DNA of 64,000 nt from Desulfovibrio ferrophilus (GTDB lineage Bacteria; Desulfobacterota; Desulfovibrionia; Desulfovibrionales; Desulfovibrionaceae), in the NCBI RefSeq assembly GCF_003966735.1, contig NZ_AP017378.1, positions 2,128,905 through 2,192,904 on the forward strand. The letters run 5' to 3'. The notes beneath the pieces were generated by a model. That model saw only the letters and a list, made by a program, of their open reading frames with translations, was not told where the DNA came from and ran no database searches. The translations under genes and the position numbers were made by a program. This document shows positions 3,521 through 15,022 of the stretch, piece after piece (the stretch's first letter is position 1; the number at the start of each line of letters is the position of its first letter).

Positions 3521-4267
3521 TTGAAATTCTCATCACATTCCCGTCACACGGCAGGGAAACCCTTGGCTTGTGCGGGGTTCACCATGATCGAACTGAGTAT
3601 TGTCCTCGTTATTGTCGGGCTCATCATATCGGCCGGGGCAGTGGGATGGACCAGTGTTTTGGAAGGGCGCAGAATAGCAAAGACGGCCTCTGCCCTCTAT
3701 CAAGCCAAAGAATGCCTGATCAAACGCATGTTCTATTCCAACCGCTACCCGACCTACACCGGGAACACGACCACTGGCACTGCTGCTGACAACACGCTTT
3801 GCGATGACAACACGCGGCACGACCTCATGGCCTTTGATGTGGACAACTGCTTTTGCAGCCTGCGAGACGCATGGGGCCAACCTCTTTATTTCCTCGAAGG
3901 TGTCTACGAGAGTTCTCCGGGCGTCTACACGCCCATGAGCGATAGCTATATAGTCAGGAACGAGGCACAGGGACAGACCCCGGTCTATCCGGACTCGACA
4001 TCCTCGATTGTTAATAAAGACGGTGTCACCATTAACAATATTGCTTTTGTCCTGATCAGTTTTGGCCGGGACAGAACCCCGGATAACACCTCGTATCAGG
4101 CACTCTTTTCTGCACCAAATGATAGCCAGATAGCCATCATCAACCCCGGTGGAACCATCCCTGATTTTTCCACCAACGATGTTGGATTAACCGTTGATGT
4201 ACAATCCAGGGACGACCAGATTTATTATGTTACCGGCCCTGAGTTGAGCGGTATCCTGACTCGCTAA
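3521..4267 (+). CDS. Prepilin-like protein with GspG-type motif, 248 aa
   Basis: It begins at a TTG preceded by GGGGGGTTCTCAC. The N-terminus has a longer leader (about 19 residues) ending CAG|FTMIE, then SIVLVIVGLIISAGAV. Further on, the block DAWGQPLYFLEG resembles the D-x-W/Y-G-x-x-(Y) segment of major pseudopilins such as GspG. The following NIAFVLISFGRDRTPDN has counterparts in the next two proteins (GFIIYTAGRDRNN, AFIVYTTGPNMT), showing that the three share one domain. First gene of a rightward three-gene set; the gap to the next gene is about 100 bp. Probably a minor pilin that helps start or cap a fibre. Confidence 0.8.
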   Translation: MKFSSHSRHTAGKPLACAGFTMIELSIVLVIVGLIISAGAVGWTSVLEGRRIAKTASALYQAKECLIKRMFYSNRYPTYTGNTTTGTAADNTLCDDNTRHDLMAFDVDNCFCSLRDAWGQPLYFLEGVYESSPGVYTPMSDSYIVRNEAQGQTPVYPDSTSSIVNKDGVTINNIAFVLISFGRDRTPDNTSYQALFSAPNDSQIAIINPGGTIPDFSTNDVGLTVDVQSRDDQIYYVTGPELSGILTR

Positions 4268-4370
4268 GGCACACACGCGGCAAGAACATACAGCAGGATT
4301 GCAGAATCCGGCATCATCCTGAACTTCATGACGACCCGCATCAGCGGAACGTAGTAACGGTGGAGGAGCA

Positions 4371-5984
4371 ATGAAAAGACAGCATGGCACGACGAGCAAA
4401 AAGTCCGTCGGCTTCGGCTTCACTCTCATCGAAATGGCCATCGTCCTGGTCATTATTGGCCTGATGGCAGGCCTGGTCCTGCCCGTTGTGAGCGACCTCA
4501 TCAAGCGAGAGAAAAGCTCCGCGACAAGCGCTTTCCTGGGAAAGATCAAGAACGAAATCATCGGTTTTGCCCTCATCAACAAGCGCCTGCCAAGGGCCCT
4601 GGATGGGACCGACCTGGGCTTCAGGGTAAGTACTGACCCATACGGCAACACCATTCAGTATGAGGTCGACACAGCTCTGAGCACCGATGACCTGTGCACG
4701 GCATCAGCCTCTGACAACCTGACCCTGCGCTACACCGACAGCACAGGCGACACCGATTATTCAAACCTTGGCTTCATCATTTATACCGCAGGTCGGGACA
4801 GAAACAACGAGATGTCCGTCGCCGCCAATATCGTGCAAGCCTATGACACACGAGCGTGGGTCACAGGTGTTGCCGGCTACGATGGCAGCGAGTTTGACGA
4901 CCTGTTCGACTATGTCTCCTTCAACTTCCTGCGCAACAAAATCTGCACAAACACAGCCAGCAATTCCTTCACACCTCCTGGCTCGGATGTCAGCTTCACG
5001 AATGACATTACCGATTTCTCCGGCGATTCTACGGGTGTGACCCCCTATGGCTCTGCCGGTGGTGCTGTTACTGTCGATATTGAGACAAACACCGTAGAAC
5101 TCGGTGGTGGAGACACTGCCACAGCATTCGATGGTTGTGTCTGGTATCAGGGCAACGAAGCCACAGGTAATTGCGGTTCCGGGGCCGCCCCAAGCAACGA
5201 CCCCGGCGTATGCGAATGGCAAGGTGGACTTCGGGCCTATTTTGCCTTTCTCGCCCGTGACGACAATACCGACTCTGACCGCGGCTGGGGCGGCGGCTTC
5301 ACCTTTGCCATCATCAACGGTGCCAACGATGCCGACTCCTGCGGTGCCGTCCCCGGCAACGGCGCCTTTCTGGCCTACAACGGTGATAATGGCACAGCAA
5401 CAAGCGGCACCAACCTCGTTCCGCCCAAACTGGCAACGGAGTTTGACTTTGCCCAGGACGCTTCCAAGCAGGACCCTGACTACAACCACGTGAGTTGGAT
5501 TGCATGGTCGGAGAATGGAGGTACTGGTGGAGATGACAACGAACACAGCGTGACCGTTCGCGAACCCACTCCCGACACACTCAACGCTCAGACCATTCCC
5601 GATGATACGAGCGCAGCCGTTCCTCCCGACACGGAACCTCCCTTCTACGGCGAAGGTCTTGGCGACCCCGCCTGGATGGAAGATGGAATCGAAAAGAAGG
5701 TCCGCGTGGAAATCACCCGAACCGCCAATGCTGGCAGCGATGGCTATGACTATACCCTCAAGACGTGGGTTGACTGCACGGATGCCAATTGCTCGGATCT
5801 GACAAACACCATGGCTGCTCTCGCCCCAGGTGTTACCGCTACGATTGAACACCAATTCACGACACTCGATGCCGACCTGACATGGGATGATATCCGCTTT
5901 GGGTGGACCGTGGGTACGGGTGGAGGCTATGATGGGGCGACTGATGTCGTCGTCACGGATTTCGGCATCAAATTCCTGCCCTAA
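4371..5984 (+). CDS. Prepilin with C-terminal concanavalin A-like (L-type lectin-like) domain, 537 aa
   Basis: GGAGGAGCA precedes the ATG. Residues 1-40 give a leader and pilin helix (GFG|FTLIEMAIVLVIIGL). Residues about 40-230 match the domain of the neighbouring prepilins (LPRALDGTD, DPYGNTIQYEVD, GFIIYTAGRDRNNE). From about residue 240 to the end the pattern is that of legume/L-type lectins: GGGFTFAIINGAND, then TEFDF with acidic and Asn residues, DPDYNHVSWIAWS, a late KVRVEITRTAN...YTLKTWVDC strand pair, and DIRFGWTVGTGG...VTDFGIKFL. It would place a sugar-binding head on a fibre tip. The lectin assignment is by pattern only. It is followed by another lectin-like prepilin. Confidence 0.8.
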   Translation: MKRQHGTTSKKSVGFGFTLIEMAIVLVIIGLMAGLVLPVVSDLIKREKSSATSAFLGKIKNEIIGFALINKRLPRALDGTDLGFRVSTDPYGNTIQYEVDTALSTDDLCTASASDNLTLRYTDSTGDTDYSNLGFIIYTAGRDRNNEMSVAANIVQAYDTRAWVTGVAGYDGSEFDDLFDYVSFNFLRNKICTNTASNSFTPPGSDVSFTNDITDFSGDSTGVTPYGSAGGAVTVDIETNTVELGGGDTATAFDGCVWYQGNEATGNCGSGAAPSNDPGVCEWQGGLRAYFAFLARDDNTDSDRGWGGGFTFAIINGANDADSCGAVPGNGAFLAYNGDNGTATSGTNLVPPKLATEFDFAQDASKQDPDYNHVSWIAWSENGGTGGDDNEHSVTVREPTPDTLNAQTIPDDTSAAVPPDTEPPFYGEGLGDPAWMEDGIEKKVRVEITRTANAGSDGYDYTLKTWVDCTDANCSDLTNTMAALAPGVTATIEHQFTTLDADLTWDDIRFGWTVGTGGGYDGATDVVVTDFGIKFLP

Positions 5985-6119
5985 CACGGCGACGAAACGA
6001 TTTTTTTGGGGGATCATGCGAATTGCAACGCGCCAGTTGCGCGTGCATCGAAATGCAACAAGCATAGCCCCCAGCGAGACACCACCATACCAACTTCAAG
6101 ATATGCAGGGATGACAGCA

Positions 6120-7592
6120 ATGCCCAAGTTCAAGCGTAACACATCATCCGCTTTCAGCCTCGTGGAAATGGCATTCATAATGATGATTGTGGGTATGATC
6201 GTGGCAGCAGTCATGCCCCGTATCCTTGGGTCTGTGGGCAAGGACAAAGCCAAACAAGCTAAATTCAGCCTTCAGGATGTTCGCGACGAAATCATCGGAT
6301 ACGCGGCAGTCAACGGCAACCTCCCCATACCAGATACCGCTGGCGGTGGATTTACGATTGTTCCCTCGGCCTTGATCACGCATAGCAAAGATGCCTGGGG
6401 ACAGGACATCCGCTACATCATTGCCCGTGATTCCGGCTCTGGAGCCCGACTGGACCAGATCAACGTCAACGATGCCACAGGAACGCAAGTCACTACCAAC
6501 CTTGATCAGTACACCGGCGGGCCAAACCTCGAGAACACTTCTGACGTGGCCTTCATTGTGTACACCACTGGGCCCAATATGACTGCGGAGTCGGTCGATG
6601 GCGTTGTTGATGGTGTGGGCACTTTCACTTACTACCCCTACGCGGCAGACCTCGATAACAACCCGGCGACCGCAGACCCCAACGACGATCAGGTTGAATA
6701 CGTCATTCTGTCTTACCTGCAGGAAAAAGCGGCGGCCTCTGCCGACGATAATGTTGCAATTTCGCCCCCGGGTTCTCCCACGGCAACACTCAATTTTGAC
6801 GGCAACGGAGGCTACACAACCAATGGAGGAGCAGCCGTAACCACCTTGGGCGATGGCACCGGCATAGGCGCGGTTTTGGATCTCACCACCAATACGGCTT
6901 ATGCGGAGCTCGACAATCCCGAGTACTATCGCCGCCATGAATTCACCATCATGGGCTGGTTCAGAACCGATATCACCGTCCCTGAAGGGACTAATAATGG
7001 ATATCAACCCATCATGAACCGCGAAAGTCCGACGACAGCATGGAACGATCGCACCTTCTGGCTTGTGACCTGGGCGAACAATAGCGGGCAGGGCCACCAA
7101 CCCGGTGAGTATGTATTCAAGGCATCAAGGGCCGTAACAGAATACAATCTGGATACAAATGCTCAGCTCCGAGTGGACACGACGGCCACGCTTCACACCG
7201 ATGCCGTCTGGCACTTCTTTGCGGCAACCATGGAGAAGGACTGCGTGGATGAAAACGGGCTACCAGTCGCGGCCATTGATTGCGACACTGCAACCTACGG
7301 CACTGCTGACTACGAAACACAGGCAGATTGGCAACATACCTTGACAATCTACGTCTCTGATGAGCCTACGGATAACGACTTGCAATCCAATACAGTAACC
7401 TACCCAACAGGTCCAGATCTTGGCCCTGCTGCCCCTGTGGCAAGCATATGGCCAACATATCTCGGCATGGAAGTTGGTGTCACTACCCGCACCTTCGACG
7501 GTTACGTCGATGAGATCAGCTTTTACGATACGGTTGTTCCCGCTGCTGATATAGAAGACTATTACGACGCCACCAAACTGAGCTTCCAATAG
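6120..7592 (+). CDS. Prepilin with C-terminal LamG-like jelly-roll domain, 490 aa
   Basis: ATG 6120 (MPKFKRNTSSA|FSLVEM) is chosen because it gives a normal short basic leader; the frame stays open upstream to 6006 without a better site. The residue before the cleavage point is Ala rather than the usual Gly. Residues about 30-200 carry the shared prepilin domain (KDAWGQDIRYIIARD, DVAFIVYTTGPNM). Residues about 240-490 look like laminin-G/concanavalin-type modules: FTIMGWFRTD, FWLVTW, AVWHFFAATMEKD, then YLGMEVGV and FDGYVDEISFYDTVVPAADI, a typical closing strand and turn. Last gene of the set, ending just before a strong terminator. Likely a surface-exposed adhesive minor pilin. Confidence 0.8.
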   Translation: MPKFKRNTSSAFSLVEMAFIMMIVGMIVAAVMPRILGSVGKDKAKQAKFSLQDVRDEIIGYAAVNGNLPIPDTAGGGFTIVPSALITHSKDAWGQDIRYIIARDSGSGARLDQINVNDATGTQVTTNLDQYTGGPNLENTSDVAFIVYTTGPNMTAESVDGVVDGVGTFTYYPYAADLDNNPATADPNDDQVEYVILSYLQEKAAASADDNVAISPPGSPTATLNFDGNGGYTTNGGAAVTTLGDGTGIGAVLDLTTNTAYAELDNPEYYRRHEFTIMGWFRTDITVPEGTNNGYQPIMNRESPTTAWNDRTFWLVTWANNSGQGHQPGEYVFKASRAVTEYNLDTNAQLRVDTTATLHTDAVWHFFAATMEKDCVDENGLPVAAIDCDTATYGTADYETQADWQHTLTIYVSDEPTDNDLQSNTVTYPTGPDLGPAAPVASIWPTYLGMEVGVTTRTFDGYVDEISFYDTVVPAADIEDYYDATKLSFQ

Positions 7593-7620: not shown

Positions 7621-7657
7621 ATGCAGGCGGCAGCTAACAGCAGCCGCCTGCATTTTT
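7621..7657 (+). terminator. Rho-independent terminator of the prepilin set, overlapping the 3' end of hgcB
   Basis: Perfect 11-bp inverted repeat (ATGCAGGCGGC at 7621-7631, GCCGCCTGCAT at 7643-7653) followed by a T run on the plus strand. The left part of the loop and the right arm are also the last codons of the convergent hgcB gene. Confidence 0.9.
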
Positions 7658-7912
7658 CGTCCATGGCAACCACGTTTGAATGATGTAGGCCGCGCAACCA
7701 ACACCCGGTGTAACCGTGATGGCCCCGGGGGCACAGTTCATGGCGCAGGCACCGCACTCCATGCAGCCGTCACCATCGACAATGACGGCCTTCTTGCCTT
7801 GAAGCTCGAACACGCCATGCGGGCAAACGGTGGTGCATGAACCGCAGCCAACACAGGCCTCGGCGTCATATTTCAGCGTTGCCACCCCATCCAGATATCT
7901 GAAGTCTTTCAT
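7634..7912 (-). CDS. hgcB: HgcB, ferredoxin of the mercury-methylation pair, 92 aa
   Basis: HgcB is the 2[4Fe-4S] protein thought to pass electrons to the corrinoid protein HgcA and to handle Hg(II) during methylmercury formation. Two full cluster motifs are visible: C20-x2-C23-x2-C26-x3-C30 (VGCGSCTTVCP) and C50-x2-C53-x2-C56-x3-C60 (MECGACAMNC). The family hallmarks are also present: the isolated Cys73 in TPGVGCAAYIIQTW and the terminal Gly-Gly-Cys-Cys (C91, C92). ATG 7912 is chosen because MKDFRYLDGVATL matches the family's usual N-terminus and length (about 95 aa) and GGGAGAGTGGA lies upstream. The frame is open for 42 more codons upstream without a better site. It lies 144 bp downstream of hgcA. 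Confidence 0.95.
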   Translation of the reverse strand: MKDFRYLDGVATLKYDAEACVGCGSCTTVCPHGVFELQGKKAVIVDGDGCMECGACAMNCAPGAITVTPGVGCAAYIIQTWLPWTKNAGGCC

Positions 7913-8056
7913 TCCACTCTCCCCTGCACACGACAAAGTCTTTGATTCATCCCAAACGGCGTGAACTTTCTGCATCAATCGCCTGCTCAGACCACGCTGT
8001 CGTCGACAAATCTGAAACATAAAGAAATCTGCAAGCACAGTCGTCCTATCACCGCC

Positions 8057-9121
8057 CTACACCATGAAGGCAGCACCGATCCACAAGGCCACAGCCATGA
8101 GCACAGCACCGCCCTGCAAGGGAATGGCCTGGCGCATCTCTTTCTCCACACCCGAGGGCGAGGTGAACGGGGTCGATCCCGTAAAATTCATGCCCAGATA
8201 GGATGACAGAGCCGTCACCCACAGCAGCAGCCCCAGACCTTCGCCCCAATGGGCCCCACCAGGCAGCCAGAACGCAGCCCCAAGCCCCACCACAAGGCCT
8301 GTAGCAGCGCCCTTGAGGCTAAAGGCCCGTCCAGGCAACCACGGCAGCAGAAGGGGCACGGCGATGGCTCCAGCCAGAATGCCCGCCAGAGTTCCACCCA
8401 GAGCCCATCCGCCCCGAGTCCAGGCGGCAGACAGCGAGAACCAATCCGGGCCGATGCCCGAGAGCACGAACATGACCAATGCACCCCAGGCCAGGGCTTT
8501 CCAGAGCAGTGTCACCTCAATGGGCACCAGCAAAGCCCGCTCGGCAAGGCTGAAGGTCGCTCTGCGCATGGTTTCATCAGCGCCCTGTTCAAGGTAGCGT
8601 GGAAGATCTGCCGCACGGATGGGCCCAAATTCAGCACCGAAGCCGCACGCTTTGCGCAGTTTGTGCGCCGACACACCAGTGGCTCCATACTGGGGCAGGA
8701 TCAGCTTGCGGTGGCTCACCACCTTATCCAGCCCAGAACGTTGCACCCTGTGAGCGACCTCTGCGGTGGAGAAGGTGCCCTTACCTGCGGCACACCAGAC
8801 ATTGATGCCGTGTGTATCGATGACCAGCAGCCAAACGTCCAGACCGGTAAGTTCACGGCGCACGATGTCGAAAGTCAGCTTGTAGTTGCAGGTCACGATC
8901 ACAGGCGACTCAGAACCGGGTTGCCCCACTCCATACAGACCGGGCACGATCTTGTAATCGTCGCGCACACCCGAAACTCGAGCCAGAAATGTTCCCCAAA
9001 GATCCCTGCGACTCAGCCTGGTCCTGATTCTCGGCACAGGCCCAGCCAAAGTTTCTGCAAAGCCTTCCACAAACGGCTCGATGCTGTAACCCGGTTTGTC
9101 ATGGTGTCCGAACCCGGACAC
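8057..9121 (-). CDS. hgcA: HgcA, corrinoid-dependent mercury methyltransferase, 354 aa
   Basis: HgcA carries a methyl group on a corrinoid cofactor and transfers it to Hg(II), giving methylmercury. The signature cap-helix motif NVWCAAGK is present at residues 107-114, with the cobalt-ligating Cys at 110. The surrounding N-terminal cytosolic corrinoid domain (VIVTCNYKLTFDIVRREL, VVSHRKLILPQYGATGV) spans roughly residues 60-190. The C-terminal part (about 205-354) holds about five hydrophobic membrane segments, as expected. The start is a GTG with GAGGACCTCAGACC upstream; no in-frame ATG lies nearby. The length fits the family (about 340 aa). It follows arsR and a 43-codon Cys-rich frame on the same strand and precedes hgcB. 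Confidence 0.95.
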   Translation of the reverse strand: MSGFGHHDKPGYSIEPFVEGFAETLAGPVPRIRTRLSRRDLWGTFLARVSGVRDDYKIVPGLYGVGQPGSESPVIVTCNYKLTFDIVRRELTGLDVWLLVIDTHGINVWCAAGKGTFSTAEVAHRVQRSGLDKVVSHRKLILPQYGATGVSAHKLRKACGFGAEFGPIRAADLPRYLEQGADETMRRATFSLAERALLVPIEVTLLWKALAWGALVMFVLSGIGPDWFSLSAAWTRGGWALGGTLAGILAGAIAVPLLLPWLPGRAFSLKGAATGLVVGLGAAFWLPGGAHWGEGLGLLLWVTALSSYLGMNFTGSTPFTSPSGVEKEMRQAIPLQGGAVLMAVALWIGAAFMV

Positions 9122-9133
9122 GGTCTGAGGTCC

Positions 9134-9265
9134 TCAACAGGGGCCCTCTTCTGCTATCTGCTGCGACGGGGACAATCCACCCGCCATGGGCAGTTCAGGC
9201 CCACACCCGCCTCCGCAACCAGTCCCGGTCTCTGATCCATTACGCAAATCTTTCAACACATTCAT
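9134..9265 (-). CDS. Candidate 43-aa Cys/Gly-rich small protein between arsR and hgcA
   Basis: A short frame missed by length cut-offs. ATG 9265 is preceded by a good site (GGAGAGTGGAGAACGT) and starts 23 bp after the arsR stop; its TGA lies 12 bp before the hgcA GTG, overlapping the likely hgcA ribosome-binding region. The product begins MNVLKDLRNGSETG, followed by TGCGGGCGPELPM, and ends EEGPC. It has three cysteines (17, 21, 43), two of them in a CGGGC loop. The position suggests translational coupling and a part in metal handling or in the arsR-hgcAB response. No family is recognised, and the frame could also be a leader peptide for hgcA. Confidence 0.6.
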   Translation of the reverse strand: MNVLKDLRNGSETGTGCGGGCGPELPMAGGLSPSQQIAEEGPC

Positions 9266-9288: not shown

Positions 9289-9627
9289 CTAAAGGTCGGC
9301 TATCTGCCCCTTGAATATCTGCAATACGTCATCATCCAGGCAATAGCAGGTTCGTGGCCCCTCAATGCGCCCCTGAACCAACCCGCAGTCCCTGAGTACC
9401 TTCAAATGCTGGCTGACCGTGGATTGCGCCAAGGGAAGCACATCCACAATCCCCCCACAGACGCAGCCCTCAACGCTTTTGAGGTGGCGTACGATAGCCA
9501 GCCGCGCAGGGTGCCCCAGAGCCTTACACACCGCTGCCAGCCGATCCGTATCAAAGACCGGGGTTGCTTTTTCATTGCCCCCGACGCCACCACAACAACC
9601 GGATATTGCATTCTTGATCTTTTCCAA
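9289..9627 (-). CDS. ArsR-family metalloregulator upstream of hgcA, 112 aa
   Basis: Winged-helix repressor of the ArsR/SmtB type. The DNA-binding stretch LAIVRHLKSVEGCVCGGIVDV and LPLAQSTVSQHLKVLRDCGLV is clear. Possible metal-binding thiols are CVC in the recognition region (the place of the ELCVCDL box of arsenic sensors), CYC near the C-terminus, and a CCGG pair in the N-terminal arm. TTG 9627 is chosen because GAGGAG precedes it by about 7 nt; the frame is open upstream to 9699. First gene of a leftward unit with the 43-aa frame, hgcA and hgcB. ArsR-like genes next to hgcAB are known in related mercury methylators. It probably represses its own unit and releases on metal or metalloid binding. 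Confidence 0.88.
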   Translation of the reverse strand: MEKIKNAISGCCGGVGGNEKATPVFDTDRLAAVCKALGHPARLAIVRHLKSVEGCVCGGIVDVLPLAQSTVSQHLKVLRDCGLVQGRIEGPRTCYCLDDDVLQIFKGQIADL

Positions 9628-9659
9628 GGCACGCTCCTCACAGCTTGCATTGTCTATTA

Positions 9660-9675
9660 ATCGTTGATCGACGAT
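9660..9675. promoter_or_regulatory. Candidate ArsR operator
   Basis: Near-perfect 16-bp palindrome ATCGTTGATCGACGAT (one mismatched pair), 33 bp upstream of the chosen arsR start. Its size and place fit the operator of a self-regulating ArsR protein; no site is recorded here, so this is inference. Confidence 0.45.
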
Positions 9676-9851
9676 AGGCGATGAAATACGAAAGGTCAAT
9701 CCCTACTTGTTCACTAGCCAAACACATAATCTCATCCGATTGTTCCTTTCAATCGAGCCACATGGCAACGCTCGCACGCACCTTCCAGACAAGGACCTTG
9801 TAACTGGCGCAGGACATCATACGCTTCAGCAGGCGCAGGGTTATAGCCCCA

Positions 9852-9908: not shown

Positions 9909-11219
9909 TTATGCAGTCTCTGGTTCGCCTTCCACGTCGGCAACTTCTTCAGCCTCGACCGGAGCCGGAGCAGCAGGAGCGCTGATGGGGTTCAGCTGAG
10001 TTTCCTGCGGGAAGACCGGCAGGTAACGATAGGACAGGGACAGGATCAGGAACCCGTAGGCGATAATCATGATCGAGGGGCCCCACTCTGCCCAGTTCGG
10101 AGTATAAGAGTACCACTGGTCGAAGGGCATGACCGGAATGGCCAGTGCCTGGACCGTGAACACGTATCTGTTGATGACAATGCCGGTGCAGTTCAGGATG
10201 GCGGCAGTATACAGCAGACCGGGGTTGTTGCGGAAGCGGGGGGTCAGCAGCAGGATAGCCGGGATGACACCACACACAACCAACTCAGCCCAGAGCAGCC
10301 ACTCACCGTAGCCCAGCGCATCGTTGAACATCTGATCCCAAGTATTACCGGAACGAGGCAGGACATCGGTAGCCCAGGCCCAGGTGTCAGCAAACTTGAA
10401 GAACAGATACAGAGCCAGCATGGTGCCACCGATGCGGCACATCAGCTTCTTGACCTTGAAGTCCACCAGTTCCTTGCCGGTGATCAGCTCCATGAGCTTC
10501 ACGACCAGAACAGAGAAACAGGGGCCGGAGGCCACGGCGGACAGGACGAACAGGAAGAACGTCCAGGGCCAGATGAAGAAGCCGTCACGCAGGATGTACG
10601 GACGGGCGAAGAGCACGCCGTACATACCACCCAGGGAGCCCTGGTGGAAGGTGGACAAGAAAGCGCCCAGACCTGCAATCAGAGGCATAACATAGTGGAA
10701 GTTATGCGCGATATTGTGCAGCAGGGGGATCTTGTTCAGCTGGCGGTTCTCCAGGATGTTCGGAATGAACTCCAGAGTCAGCACCAAGAGGTAACAGGAG
10801 ATGCAGAACATCACCTCTGTCAGCATGGAGTGAACGTTCGGATGCCAGAAGCCGAACCAGGAGCGCAGCGGCTGACCAACGTCCAGAGCCAAAACCAGCA
10901 TGGCACCAGAGTAACAGATGAAGCCGACGATGACCGTCAGATTGACGATCTTCTCCAGCTCTTTGATATCCAGGATGTACTTCAAGAGGCCGGTGAAGAA
11001 GGCACCTGCGCCCAAGGCGATGACGCCAAGGTCGAAAGTGATCCACAGGCCAAACCCGAAGTAGTTGTCCAGCGCGGTACGCGCCAGACCATCAGGAAGC
11101 AGGATCATGACAGCTTCATACGCGCCAGCGGCCAAGAAGATGCCAATGAAACCGAGCCACAGCAGGAATTTGCCGAATGAGCAGCGCTCAACGCCCTCAG
11201 GCCACAGAGCTCTATCCAT
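9909..11219 (-). CDS. qrcD: QrcD, NrfD/PsrC-type membrane subunit of the quinone reductase complex, 436 aa
   Basis: Integral membrane, quinone-interacting subunit of Qrc, which takes electrons from periplasmic cytochrome c3 to the menaquinone pool in sulfate reducers. About ten hydrophobic segments are readable, starting with FLLWLGFIGIFLAAGAYEA and ending with IMIIAYGFLILSLSY. Charged residues inside the helices (for example LHNIAHNFHYVMPL and FHQGSLGGMYG) are typical of the NrfD fold. ATG 11219 overlaps the end of qrcC by 8 nt; the longer frame upstream is an artefact of the other gene's alternative frame. The tail after residue 410 is rich in Pro, Ala and Glu. Last gene of qrcABCD, followed by a terminator. 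Confidence 0.93.
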   Translation of the reverse strand: MDRALWPEGVERCSFGKFLLWLGFIGIFLAAGAYEAVMILLPDGLARTALDNYFGFGLWITFDLGVIALGAGAFFTGLLKYILDIKELEKIVNLTVIVGFICYSGAMLVLALDVGQPLRSWFGFWHPNVHSMLTEVMFCISCYLLVLTLEFIPNILENRQLNKIPLLHNIAHNFHYVMPLIAGLGAFLSTFHQGSLGGMYGVLFARPYILRDGFFIWPWTFFLFVLSAVASGPCFSVLVVKLMELITGKELVDFKVKKLMCRIGGTMLALYLFFKFADTWAWATDVLPRSGNTWDQMFNDALGYGEWLLWAELVVCGVIPAILLLTPRFRNNPGLLYTAAILNCTGIVINRYVFTVQALAIPVMPFDQWYSYTPNWAEWGPSIMIIAYGFLILSLSYRYLPVFPQETQLNPISAPAAPAPVEAEEVADVEGEPETA

Positions 11220-12036
11220 GTTGGCCACCTCCATTGCCGCCATGAGCTGCGGCGCCTTCGGATTCCAGGTAGTTGTCACCCTGCTTGCGAACCCACTCGC
11301 GCTTGCTGATGTAGTAGACCTGGGGGTCAGTACCCAGGCGCTCCAGCAGGCGGAAGGCATACGGGCTCTTGGCGAGCTCGTGAACCTCATGCTCGGGGTT
11401 CTTCACATCGCCGAAGGAGATGGCGCCGGTGGGGCAGGCTTCGGCACATGCAGGCATGTAGGCGCCGTCGGCCAGCTTTTCCGGATCCTCGCCAGCCACA
11501 CGGGCGGCGTCCTTGGCGTACATCAGGCGATGGTGACAGAAGTTACACTTCTCGACCACACCGCGTGAACGCACGGAGACGTTGGGGGTCAGCTGTTTCT
11601 CCATCCCTTCGGGGAAGATGGGCTGATCCCAGTTGAATACGCGAGCGTGGTAGGGGCACGACGCCATGCAGTACCGGCAGCCGAAGCAGCGCGGATAGAT
11701 CTGGCTGACGATGCCGCCTTCCTCGTTCTTGTCAGTGGCAATGGCCGGGCAGACAGACACGCACGAGGGCATGCCGCACTGCATACAGGGCCGAGGCAGG
11801 AATGCGGTATCGTGGTCGCCGCCCTGCTTGCCGTTGGACAGTTCATAGATAGTCAGCCATTCGATCTTCTTGAAGCGGGTCGGGAAACCCTTGCTCTCAA
11901 GACGAGCCTTGGCCTCTTCCTGGGGAGCGATATTGTTTTCCTTGTTGCAGGCCGTCATGCAGGCGCCGCAACCGGTGCATTTGTCGATATCGACAACCAT
12001 GCTCCAGCGGATATTGAATTCCTTAAATCCAGCCAT
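11212..12036 (-). CDS. qrcC: QrcC, periplasmic iron-sulfur subunit of the quinone reductase complex, 274 aa
   Basis: Ferredoxin-like electron-transfer subunit with four Cys-rich cluster motifs: CTGCGACMTAC near residue 20, CMQCGMPSCVSVC near 84, CFGCRYCMASCPY near 117, and CNFC (about 164) pairing with CAEACPTG (about 203). This order matches the DmsB/PhsB/QrcC family, and the length fits. No signal peptide of its own is visible; such subunits usually travel with the Tat-exported partner, here QrcB. It starts 14 bp after qrcB and overlaps qrcD, so it is part of one transcript. Confidence 0.94.
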   Translation of the reverse strand: MAGFKEFNIRWSMVVDIDKCTGCGACMTACNKENNIAPQEEAKARLESKGFPTRFKKIEWLTIYELSNGKQGGDHDTAFLPRPCMQCGMPSCVSVCPAIATDKNEEGGIVSQIYPRCFGCRYCMASCPYHARVFNWDQPIFPEGMEKQLTPNVSVRSRGVVEKCNFCHHRLMYAKDAARVAGEDPEKLADGAYMPACAEACPTGAISFGDVKNPEHEVHELAKSPYAFRLLERLGTDPQVYYISKREWVRKQGDNYLESEGAAAHGGNGGGQHG

Positions 12037-12050
12037 GATACCTTCCTCTC

Positions 12051-14096
12051 TTATGCGGTGGCGATGGTCACCCGGTTGGTAGACCAGACGGAGAGGCCGG
12101 TCTCGGGATCATCTGCCGCAGCGAGCAACTTGAAGGCGTTCTCGCCCACGCCCTTGCTGAAGCCGTCCCATGCGGTGTGGCCGAACCCGAGAGGAGCGGC
12201 GACAACACCGGTCATCACCTTCTCGGAAACGTACACCTGAGCGGTCATTTCGCCGCCGGGACCCATCAGCTTGACAGTCTCGCCAGCCTTGACGCCGCTC
12301 ATACGGGCGGTCTTGGCATTCATCTGAACCACAGTCTGCACACCACTCAGCTCGGTATCGCGGATGGAACCGGCGCTGTGCGGCGGCATGGCGACCTTGG
12401 AGGTACCGATGTTGTGCTTGACCACAGGAGCCAGAGCCAGGGTGCCCTCGCCAATGGCGCGGACAGCCGGAGCGGCACAAGGAGCCAGGTTCAGCTGTGC
12501 AGAGGAAGCAGAGGCAGAAGTCCAGGCCTTGCCCTGACGGAGAGAACTCCAGGAGGCACCCAAACGAGTGGCCTTGGCCTGAAGCACATCCTTGAAGGAG
12601 GCGTAACCGAGATCCATGCCCAGGCGGGAAGCCACGGAGAGCATCACGTCGGCGGTGGTACGCGTATCAAACGCGGACTTCACCAGCGGCTTGTTGACGC
12701 TGTAGGTGGCAGTGCCTGCTCCATGAGGAGTGTAGAGATCATCGTAGCGCTCAGCGGTCATGCTGTTGGGCATGATCAGGTTGGCGCGCTCGGCGGTCTC
12801 ATCCATGAAGGAGCTGAAGGACACGGTGTAGGCAGCCTTGTCCATGGCCTTGGCCATGGCCTGGGTCTGCGGCAAACCGTAGGCGGGATTGGCGTCGTAG
12901 ACCATGAGCACTTTGGCGCCATCACGACCTTCGGCGACACCCTTCAGGAAGGGAATCACGTCGGCAGCGTAACGCTCGGACTCGGAACCAGCGCCCTGAA
13001 CCACCGCGGGAGCACCCGGGATGATCTTCACGCTCTGGCCCATCTGGCCCAGCAGCACGTTCAGACCAAGGGAAGCCATCAGCGCGCGTGCGCCGGCACC
13101 CTGACCGAACTCGGAACCGGCAATCACCAGCGGACGCTTGGCAGCAGCCAGCTCGCGAGCGATCTTCTTCAGCACGTCTGCACGCACACCGGTCTCGCGT
13201 TCCACATGGGCAGGAGCGTAGCCCTGGGCCACGTTCTGCTTGAAGGAGGCAAAACCCTTGGCGTTGGCGACAGCACCGTTGTCCATGAGGATGCGGGACA
13301 GGCCCAGAGCCACGGTCGCGGCTGCGCCGGGCTTGGCCTGAATCCACTGGTCACAGACCACGGCAGTGTTGTTCATCACCGGACCGGCGTACACGTACTT
13401 GGCCGAAGCGGCCTTGCCGGTGGGATGAGTCTCGGAGAACACACGCGCGTTACGCGTGGAAGTGCCCGAAGACTCCAGGGCATCAGCGCCCAGGAACAAC
13501 ACGTAGTCGGCATTTTCGATGTCGTAAGCGATGCGGCCTTCGCCGCCCATCATCTCCAGGGCCTTGTGAGCGCTCTGGGTTTCGCCGGGCATCATGTAGA
13601 AGGAACCATCGAGGCCATTCACCAGAGCGGCAAAGATCTCGTTGGCAGAGCCGGTGTCGTCACCGCTGACCATGGCGACTTCGCCACGGGCTTCGGAAAG
13701 CTTACCGGTCAGAATAGTTTCAGCCTCGTCCCAGGAAATGGCCTTGAATCCGGTAGCGGTCTTCAGCATGGGCTGACGCACGCGTGCAGGGCTGTGGAGC
13801 AGCCCGACTTCGGCGGCGGCCATGGTGGAGACAGCACCCTTGCCCAGGGGATGATCGACGTTGCCGGCGACGCCTACGGCGTTACCATTGACAACGGCGA
13901 CTTTCACGCCAGAGCCAGAGGGATCAAGTTTGGAGGCCATCTCTGCAAAGTAGATAGCTCTCTTGGGAACCTTGGGGTTCCACTGCCAGTTCTGGGTCCA
14001 AATGGAGGCATCGTCCGTCAGTTTCCACGGAATGGGAGTGATCATCAATCCCGCCGTGGCGCCTGCGGAGAAGGTCAGAAAAGTTCTTCTGTTCAT
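12051..14096 (-). CDS. qrcB: QrcB, molybdopterin-oxidoreductase-like subunit of the quinone reductase complex, 681 aa
   Basis: Large periplasmic subunit related to molybdopterin oxidoreductases but known in Qrc to lack the cofactor. ATG 14096 is preceded by GGAAGGGTGG and begins a twin-arginine-like leader, MNRRTFLTFSAGATAGLM. The central body shows family blocks such as NVDHPLGKGAVSTM, RQPMLKTATGFKAISWDEA, VLMVYDANPAYGLPQT and RANLIMPNSMTAERYDD. No N-terminal Cys-rich [4Fe-4S] motif of active enzymes is present, in line with a structural or relay role. Second gene of the operon, 14 bp downstream of qrcA. Confidence 0.94.
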   Translation of the reverse strand: MNRRTFLTFSAGATAGLMITPIPWKLTDDASIWTQNWQWNPKVPKRAIYFAEMASKLDPSGSGVKVAVVNGNAVGVAGNVDHPLGKGAVSTMAAAEVGLLHSPARVRQPMLKTATGFKAISWDEAETILTGKLSEARGEVAMVSGDDTGSANEIFAALVNGLDGSFYMMPGETQSAHKALEMMGGEGRIAYDIENADYVLFLGADALESSGTSTRNARVFSETHPTGKAASAKYVYAGPVMNNTAVVCDQWIQAKPGAAATVALGLSRILMDNGAVANAKGFASFKQNVAQGYAPAHVERETGVRADVLKKIARELAAAKRPLVIAGSEFGQGAGARALMASLGLNVLLGQMGQSVKIIPGAPAVVQGAGSESERYAADVIPFLKGVAEGRDGAKVLMVYDANPAYGLPQTQAMAKAMDKAAYTVSFSSFMDETAERANLIMPNSMTAERYDDLYTPHGAGTATYSVNKPLVKSAFDTRTTADVMLSVASRLGMDLGYASFKDVLQAKATRLGASWSSLRQGKAWTSASASSAQLNLAPCAAPAVRAIGEGTLALAPVVKHNIGTSKVAMPPHSAGSIRDTELSGVQTVVQMNAKTARMSGVKAGETVKLMGPGGEMTAQVYVSEKVMTGVVAAPLGFGHTAWDGFSKGVGENAFKLLAAADDPETGLSVWSTNRVTIATA

Positions 14097-14110
14097 ATGC
14101 GCCACCCTTC

Positions 14111-14713
14111 CTATCGATGACAAACGTAGCAAGCGTTGCTCTGGCCGTTCTCGGCGTGGCAGCGCTCACATTCCCACATTTTCATGGTACCGCGGCTGTA
14201 AGCCGGGTCCACACCGACGCCCCTGCCAAACACGATCTTGTAACCACCGTTGGAATATCCAGTCAGGACGTTCTTGTAATGAGTCGGCGGTGTGTCGTTT
14301 TCAGACATGTTGGGGTGACAGGTGGTACAGTCCTTATCCTGGTGCGCGGCGTGCGAGAAAAACACGTTGTCCGGCTGGTCCTGATAGACAAGCCATTCGA
14401 CTTCTTTCTCTTCGTTCACGTACTCGTTCACGAACTGCTCCTCAGCCGGGTCCTCGCCCATCACGTCGCTGTGGCACTCGGCGCACGACTCGGTGTTGGG
14501 GATACCACTGAAGGATCCATCATCGTTGAAGTAATGGCAGTCTTCGCAAGACATACCGCCGTCGTCCACGTGAATCACGTGGCTGAAGCGGATGGGCTGC
14601 TCAGCTTTGCTAAACAGCGCCTGGGGGAATACCCACCAGCCCACGAAGAGCATCGCCACAAAACCAACGAAGAAGGGCAATGCTCCTCCACTGCTCGATG
14701 CTTTCTTCACCAT
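14111..14713 (-). CDS. qrcA: QrcA, multihaem cytochrome c subunit of the quinone reductase complex, 200 aa
   Basis: Entry point for electrons from cytochrome c3. One N-terminal membrane anchor (LPFFVGFVAMLFVGWWVF) precedes a periplasmic domain with five CXXCH haem sites: CEDCH, CAECH, CTTCH, CERCH and CYVCH. The complex is described as having a six-haem QrcA; only five standard sites and ten cysteines are seen here. ATG 14713 is chosen over the one at 14728 because GAGGCGAGAG lies before it and none lies before the other. First gene of qrcABCD. Confidence 0.93.
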   Translation of the reverse strand: MVKKASSSGGALPFFVGFVAMLFVGWWVFPQALFSKAEQPIRFSHVIHVDDGGMSCEDCHYFNDDGSFSGIPNTESCAECHSDVMGEDPAEEQFVNEYVNEEKEVEWLVYQDQPDNVFFSHAAHQDKDCTTCHPNMSENDTPPTHYKNVLTGYSNGGYKIVFGRGVGVDPAYSRGTMKMWECERCHAENGQSNACYVCHR

Positions 14714-15022
14714 ATGCTCTCGCCTCATCCGTAAAAGGTGAAAGGATTATCCAAGCCGGGCCCGCGGCCCGACATCCCACCCAGGCAAAGGCTTATGCCT
14801 GTGCCATAACCCCGCTTGAAAACACATTCCCGGATGGCCTTGGGCCAAGAGAGAATACGTCCAGACGGGGAAATTTCTTAGTAAAACCTCACTTGAGAGA
14901 CCGCTAGGTTCTATGCATGAGAGATCAAGCGTGTCAAGGCTTAATGAAAAAATTCACGAGGTTTGCCGGGTCTGTTTTCACCCCTCACACAGGGGGAAAT
15001 CATAGATTGGAAACCACGAAAA
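14714..15022. other. Intergenic region upstream of qrcA
   Basis: 309 bases between the qrcA start and the manC stop, both on the minus strand. It must contain the qrc promoter and leader and the end of the manC transcript. I see no reading frame with a ribosome-binding site and no strong terminator; promoter elements could not be picked out with confidence. Confidence 0.5.

What the first reader, a model, noticed from the sequence alone, without database searches (positions are those of the whole stretch)
7634..9121. Complete mercury-methylation gene pair hgcA-hgcB
HgcA has the NVWCAAGK cap-helix motif with the corrinoid-ligating Cys and a C-terminal membrane domain. HgcB has two [4Fe-4S] motifs, Cys73 and the terminal Cys-Cys. 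All residues known to matter are intact, so the organism should make methylmercury. The pair occurs in a small, scattered set of anaerobes.
Basis: partly seen in the sequence, partly recalled or inferred. Interest (0 to 1): 0.85.

Follow-up and report, generated by a model that had tools for sequence, protein, structure and literature searches.

The report
Mercury-methylation genes, selenocysteine start missed
The mercury-methylating gene pair is really there, but its first protein is longer than it looks: it runs through an internal TGA codon that most likely inserts the rare amino acid selenocysteine, a variant already predicted for this family and seen here in nearly all relatives from the genus of the model mercury methylator.

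Summary
In detail: hgcA and hgcB lie on the minus strand and score over the NCBIfam cut-offs (416.9 vs 275 bits; 119.3 vs 99). But hgcA starts at an ATG at 9265, not 9121, and reads in frame through one TGA (9136-9134), giving 402 residues with Cys43-Sec44. Evidence: of 186 distinct HgcA loci 88 carry TGA in that column and 73 Cys; the same-genus relative keeps the TGA; the tree needs at least 13 Sec/Cys changes; a SECIS-like hairpin follows in 79 of 92 Sec genes against 7 of 73 Cys genes; the genome has tRNA-Sec, SelA, SelB and SelD. Selenoprotein HgcA is in print (review table), so this is a new member of a known kind. Less expected: 20 of 21 Pseudodesulfovibrio HgcA have the TGA, and the published numbering of the model ND132 enzyme (Cys93) fits a protein cut off behind that codon. 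ND132 DNA was not seen. The arm's role, perhaps Hg(II) handling, is inferred; it is not universal and may be dispensable.

The parts
8057..9265 (-). hgcA, full frame: ATG 9265 to stop; 402 residues, Sec44 by TGA, corrinoid domain with NVWCAAGK (Cys158), five-helix membrane domain
   Evidence: Read-through translation, NF040863 416.2 bits on the full protein, structure model
9134..9136 (-). TGA codon 44, probably read as selenocysteine (Cys43-Sec44-Gly-Pro)
   Evidence: In-frame TGA; column occupied by TGA or Cys in most relatives
9104..9121 (-). bSECIS-like hairpin: 7-bp stem GTGTCCG/CGGACAC, loop GGTT, 19 nt between TGA and loop
   Evidence: model of bacterial SECIS in PMC13188914 (passage)
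7634..7912 (-). hgcB, 92 residues, two [4Fe-4S] motifs, Cys73, terminal Cys-Cys
   Evidence: NF040864 119.3 bits
9289..9699 (-). ArsR/SmtB-type regulator gene directly upstream of hgcA, same strand (start codon not settled)
   Evidence: NF033788 75.2 bits, cut-off 55; HTH_5 43.8 bits
9859..9884 (-). terminator-like hairpin with T run between qrcD and the arsR-type gene
   Evidence: Pattern match only (3 found in the region, 2.0 expected)

Best explanation
This is an arsR-hgcA-hgcB unit of a Desulfovibrionaceae sulfate reducer in which HgcA is a selenoprotein. SelB brings Sec-tRNA to the UGA at codon 44, directed by the hairpin whose stem begins 12 nt behind it (shown by sequence, comparison and predicted structure only). 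The product is a membrane corrinoid protein whose cap-helix Cys158 ligates cobalt; a methyl group is loaded on cobalt and passed to Hg(II), with HgcB supplying electrons through its [4Fe-4S] clusters (known for the family, not tested here). The N-terminal arm that carries Cys43-Sec44 is disordered in the model and stands before the corrinoid domain; I infer that it is a second flexible thiol/selenol arm, like the Cys-Cys tail of HgcB, that captures Hg(II) or takes over the product. The Sec reading is well supported (the confidence given is for it); the arm's role is a guess (about 0.45).
For: Family scores over the cut-offs. From ATG 9265 to the stop the frame has one TGA and no other stop. 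Of 186 distinct HgcA loci 88 have TGA in that column, 4 within two positions, 73 Cys, 13 another letter, 8 none; 82 of the 88 have Cys just before it. Relatives without TGA mostly have CC there, followed by G or P, e.g. CCGP for CUGP. Same-genus G396, 79% identical, keeps the TGA. Hairpin with 5 bp next to a 3-6 nt loop at the right place: 79 of 92 Sec genes (U and near-U), 7 of 73 Cys genes, 9.8% of letter-shuffled sequences; G in the first two loop letters in 79 of 79; arms pair 4.82 of 5, dealt to other sequences 2.89 +- 0.12. The tree needs at least 13 Sec/Cys changes, 8 forced by starred branches. Own genome: tRNA-Sec 80.9 bits, SelB 396.6, SelA 617.9, SelD 340.5, itself with one TGA, each over its cut-off. 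Model: residues 1-49 have pLDDT under 50, 291 of 402 residues 90 or more.
Against: No selenium or mass-spectrometry data. The window's own hairpin is not unusual against shuffles (z -0.73; 47 of 200 fold as well). A GTG at 9121 with GAGG before it could restart translation behind the TGA. SelB is over the cut-off in 353 of 395 genomes of the phylum, so its presence separates little. For the arm's role: 13 of 186 HgcA have another letter in the column, 8 of them with a lone Cys just before it, 4 without, 1 masked, and recombinant ND132 HgcAB, probably without the arm, made methylmercury in E. coli lysate (PMC11588087, passages).
Confidence: 0.9

Rival explanations
1. The TGA is a true stop. A 43-residue Cys-containing leader peptide (9265-9134) ends there and HgcA starts again at GTG 9121 or GTG 9070, perhaps by translational coupling.
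For: GTG 9121 has GAGG nearby. Starting at GTG 9070 gives Cys93 and 337 residues, close to the published ND132 protein.
Against: 73 of 186 relatives have Cys and an uninterrupted frame in the same column. I saw no TAA or TAG in the CUGP context; one row, L044, has a TAA near that place in a sequence without the motif. GTG 9070 encodes Val66, invariant in two alignments whose rows mostly run on upstream of it.
Confidence: 0.06
2. Sequencing error or recent pseudogene: TGA arose from a Cys codon and the gene is damaged.
For: A single base separates TGA from a Cys codon.
Against: TGA in the same column in 88 of 186 distinct loci and in the same-genus genome; the rest of the frame is intact.
Confidence: 0.01
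3. HgcA is a selenoprotein, but the Cys-Sec arm is a redox device (selenenylsulfide) that reduces or protects the corrinoid or HgcB clusters rather than a mercury-binding arm.
For: Neighbouring Cys-Sec pairs are redox active in other selenoproteins (general knowledge, no call). Cys forms carry more CC pairs (mean 1.47 against 1.02), which would fit either role.
Against: None decisive; I looked for no partner reductase.
Confidence: 0.35

Closest known systems
HgcA selenoprotein form (NF040863 with CU motif), listed in PMC13188914 with reference to Haft and Gwadz 2023
   Same: Same family and motif: one Sec, CU, in HgcA (passage of the table)
   Different: I could not read the original paper (not held), so whether this genus is among its examples is unknown
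HgcAB of Pseudodesulfovibrio mercurii ND132 (UniProt F0JBF0 and F0JBF1, named)
   Same: Same core; 53% identical to the model 9a0b over 326 columns; HgcB has Cys73 and a terminal Cys-Cys in both
   Different: Published ND132 HgcA is numbered from a start behind the Sec column (Cys93 against Cys158 here). ND132 DNA was not seen
Corrinoid iron-sulfur protein large subunit (CFeSP; 2ycl, 2h9a)
   Same: Corrinoid domain fold: rmsd 1.3-1.4 A over about 125 columns, 29-30% identity
   Different: No cap-helix Cys: the alignment has VLTAWAAG where HgcA has VWCAAGKG, Thr at the Cys. No HgcA-type membrane domain in CFeSP (general knowledge)
HgcB selenoprotein form (GVGU)
   Same: Partner gene of the same pathway; Sec in place of Cys73 (review table; L190-L192 here)
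   Different: HgcB of this window has Cys73; the three HgcB-Sec loci seen (two of them alike) have Cys in HgcA

Membership tests
HgcA (NF040863) | Whole-protein score over the curated cut-off of 275 bits | tested here: met
   416.9 bits (core) and 416.2 bits (full frame)
HgcA (NF040863) | Cap helix NVWCAAGK with cobalt-ligating Cys | tested here: met
   Motif with Cys158; the ligation itself is not testable here
HgcA (NF040863) | Corrinoid domain followed by five membrane helices | tested here: met
   Model helices 240-268, 278-309, 315-332, 340-364, 373-401, mean pLDDT 85.7; CFeSP-like domain. Membrane insertion itself not tested
HgcB (NF040864) | Score over 99 bits, two [4Fe-4S] motifs, Cys73, C-terminal Cys pair | tested here: met
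   119.3 bits; residues counted on the translation
Mercury methylator | Makes methylmercury from Hg(II) | not testable with these tools
   Needs a culture assay
Bacterial selenoprotein | In-frame UGA in a conserved Cys/Sec column | tested here: met
   88 U, 4 near U, 73 C of 186
Bacterial selenoprotein | bSECIS: loop of 3-9 nt with G in its first two positions, upper stem 4-16 bp, 16-37 nt from UGA to loop (PMC13188914, passage) | tested here: met
   Window: 7 bp, loop GGTT, 19 nt; family: 79 of 92. By energy alone the window hairpin is not unusual
Bacterial selenoprotein | tRNA-Sec, SelA, SelB, SelD in the genome | tested here: met
Bacterial selenoprotein | Selenium present in the protein | not testable with these tools
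   Needs 75Se labelling or mass spectrometry
hgcAB-linked ArsR regulator | ArsR/SmtB family gene directly upstream, cotranscribed with hgcA | tested here: inconclusive
   Family and position met; cotranscription is reported for Desulfovibrio and Pseudodesulfovibrio (PMC7438021, passage), not tested here

The most novel reading that the evidence does not exclude
The selenocysteine form is the usual HgcA of Pseudodesulfovibrio, the model strain ND132 included: the reference enzyme, numbered so that its cap-helix Cys is 93, was annotated from a GTG that really encodes an invariant valine behind an in-frame Sec codon. Published structural models and recombinant enzyme would then lack the native mobile Cys-Sec arm, and methylation in these strains would depend on selenium supply through that arm, which handles Hg(II).
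Probability: 0.4. Interest if true: 0.75.

Novelty: new member of a known kind. Interest (0 to 1): 0.45.

Why it matters
Much of the biochemistry of methylmercury formation that I saw cited uses Pseudodesulfovibrio mercurii ND132. If that enzyme too starts before a Sec codon (20 of 21 HgcA of its genus do), its annotated form lacks the natural N-terminus, and selenium becomes a directly testable factor in mercury methylation. For annotation, a reading that stops at TGA loses 48 codons of this gene.

Tried and rejected

Considered and rejected: CdhD/CFeSP misassignment; HgcAB-like fusion protein NF043039 (199.4 bits against a cut-off of 285); pseudogene. Some '1 TGA' counts are the stop at the end of the gene (L007, L009), so I recounted by column.

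Rows dropped and doubtful: one search used 190 loci; 29 not matched by my cap-helix pattern and 3 duplicates left 158. One search used 226, 186 kept; of the 40 dropped, 8 were duplicates, 30 missed the pattern and in 2 no cap helix was found. Read by eye, 3 of the 30 have U in the column (L071, L073, L207), so the dropped rows lean to Cys or neither. Of the 88 U rows, 6 lack Cys before U and one of these (L115) is probably a chance TGA; of the 4 near-U rows L112 is doubtful. If rows with another letter count as not-Sec, the tree needs 17 changes. An earlier count said 13 of 20 for the GTG count; recounted it is 12 of 20.

Full report
What is there. The window (positions 2128905-2192904 of the larger of two contigs of a 3.72-Mb genome) carries hgcA and hgcB on the minus strand. 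The hgcA core and hgcB pass the curated NCBIfam cut-offs (416.9 against 275 and 119.3 against 99 bits). Pfam sees CdhD (54 bits) and ferredoxin domains. A search of the own genome with the protein finds this one place. The family is Desulfovibrionaceae: genome G213 of the same family holds a contig of the same length (119,195) as JAVHLG010000003.1, a Desulfovibrionaceae MAG, with the same gene in the stretch compared.

Upstream of the GTG at 9121 the same frame continues to an ATG at 9265 with a plausible ribosome site (GTGGAGAACGT before ATG). The only interruption is a TGA at 9136-9134, codon 44: EEGPC-U-GPQTVSGFGHHDKPGY. The full protein has 402 residues, with the cap-helix Cys at 158.

Relatives. 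In a sample of 395 genomes of the phylum the read-through protein finds many relatives, and the search itself reports one TGA inside for a good part of them. I took the 30 loci given there, 80 further stretches, 80 named loci and 26 and 10 loci of the family and of Pseudodesulfovibrio: 226 in all. Aligned by column, the 186 distinct ones that my pattern kept give 88 TGA, 4 TGA within two positions, 73 Cys, 13 another letter, 8 none. Cys forms mostly read CC followed by G or P where Sec forms mostly read CUGP or CUP. The genus-mate G396 (79% identical) reads GPCUGPQTVSGFG at the same place. Of the 8 rows without a letter, 3 are cut by a contig edge, 4 have stops upstream but no recognisable motif (one, L044, with a TAA near that place), and one has a lone Cys.

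SECIS. The bacterial SECIS model asks for a small loop with G in its first two positions, 16-37 nt behind UGA (PMC13188914, passage). Here a 7-bp stem GTGTCCG/CGGACAC carries the loop GGTT, 19 nt behind the TGA. Across the family the hairpin is the strongest evidence: 79 of 92 Sec genes against 7 of 73 Cys genes and 9.8% of letter-shuffled sequences, G in the first two loop letters in 79 of 79, arms that pair 4.82 of 5 but 2.89 +- 0.12 when dealt to other sequences (that control does not remove relatedness). An ensemble calculation on a smaller set gives 43 of 64 against 13 of 71 (p = 5.7e-9), and folding z-scores differ too (mean -0.53 against 0.17). The window's hairpin alone is not unusual by energy (z -0.73).

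Sec/Cys exchange. On a FastTree tree of 185 rows the label needs at least 13 changes, 8 of them forced by starred branches; shuffled labels need about 54. So the two forms have replaced each other several times, yet each is clustered. The starred set of 55 rows that holds the window has 53 Sec, 1 Cys and 1 without label.

Machinery. tRNA-Sec (80.9 bits, gathering score 47), SelB (396.6), SelA (617.9) and SelD (340.5, with its own TGA) are in the genome.

Pseudodesulfovibrio and ND132. Genus g249 is Pseudodesulfovibrio: two of its loci (L229, L232) equal, in the stretch compared, records titled so (L120, L152). There 21 of 36 genomes have HgcA and 20 of these carry one TGA, which I checked to be the CU column in all 20; the 21st locus ends before the column. 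The ND132 enzyme is numbered with cap-helix Cys93 (PMC7305189, passages); its model 9a0b has 329 residues after nine were left out, hence 338. Counting back from that Cys, residue 1 falls on our Val66, invariant in two alignments, and in 12 of the 20 Pseudodesulfovibrio Sec genes a GTG stands exactly there and would give Cys93 and 336-342 residues; the window too has GTG there (9070; 337 residues). This suggests, without proof, that the ND132 annotation starts at a false GTG behind a Sec codon. I could not see ND132 DNA.

Structure. AlphaFold2 on 49 aligned sequences: mean pLDDT 85.7, pTM 0.79, residues 1-49 under 50. The closest PDB entries are the HgcAB model 9a0b and CFeSP chains. The Cys-Sec pair thus seems to sit on a mobile arm, comparable to the disordered tail of HgcB described in PMC7305189 (passages). 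That the arm handles Hg(II) is inference. Against necessity: some HgcA lack the pair, and recombinant ND132 HgcAB was active in lysate (PMC11588087, passages). Cys forms carry somewhat more CC pairs in the arm (1.47 against 1.02).

Known or new. PMC13188914 (passages of its table) lists HgcA with motif CU and HgcB with GVGU as selenoproteins; [quoted passage not shown] The 2023 paper was not held. So the kind is known. In the listings and the passages that I read, nothing says that the HgcA of ND132 itself is a selenoprotein; the library lacks most subscription journals.

Neighbourhood. An ArsR-type gene lies just upstream of hgcA (9289-9699), as reported for Desulfovibrio and Pseudodesulfovibrio (PMC7438021, passage). 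Beyond it lies qrcABCD on the same strand, with a terminator-like site between. Downstream, on the plus strand, are genes with pilin-like N-termini.

Noticed in passing
9909-14728 (-): Complete qrcABCD operon (menaquinone reductase of sulfate reducers) directly upstream of the arsR-hgcAB unit; all four subunits over the NCBIfam cut-offs.
   Followed up: partly
3521-7592 (+): Three consecutive genes with type IV pilin-like N-termini (GFTMIELSIVLVI, GFTLIEMAIVLVI, AFSLVEMAFIMMI), the second and third long; convergent with hgcB. Family not tested.
   Followed up: no
L190, L191, L192 (Desulfotignum MAGs): HgcB with TGA in place of Cys73 (GVGU), while HgcA of the same loci has Cys in the Sec column: 3 of the 78 loci in which my pattern saw HgcB; L190 and L192 are alike.
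   Followed up: partly
L059, L065, L072, L045: HgcA arms with the order Sec-Cys (UC) instead of Cys-Sec; each has a stem-loop in the SECIS region, placed slightly earlier in L059 and L065.
   Followed up: no
L237 (G000:C1:455441-456355): SelD of the own genome itself has an in-frame TGA, so it is probably a selenoprotein.
   Followed up: no
9289-9699 (-): The ArsR-type regulator has its own CCGG stretch before the DNA-binding domain and GCVCGG further on; its metal is unknown.
   Followed up: no
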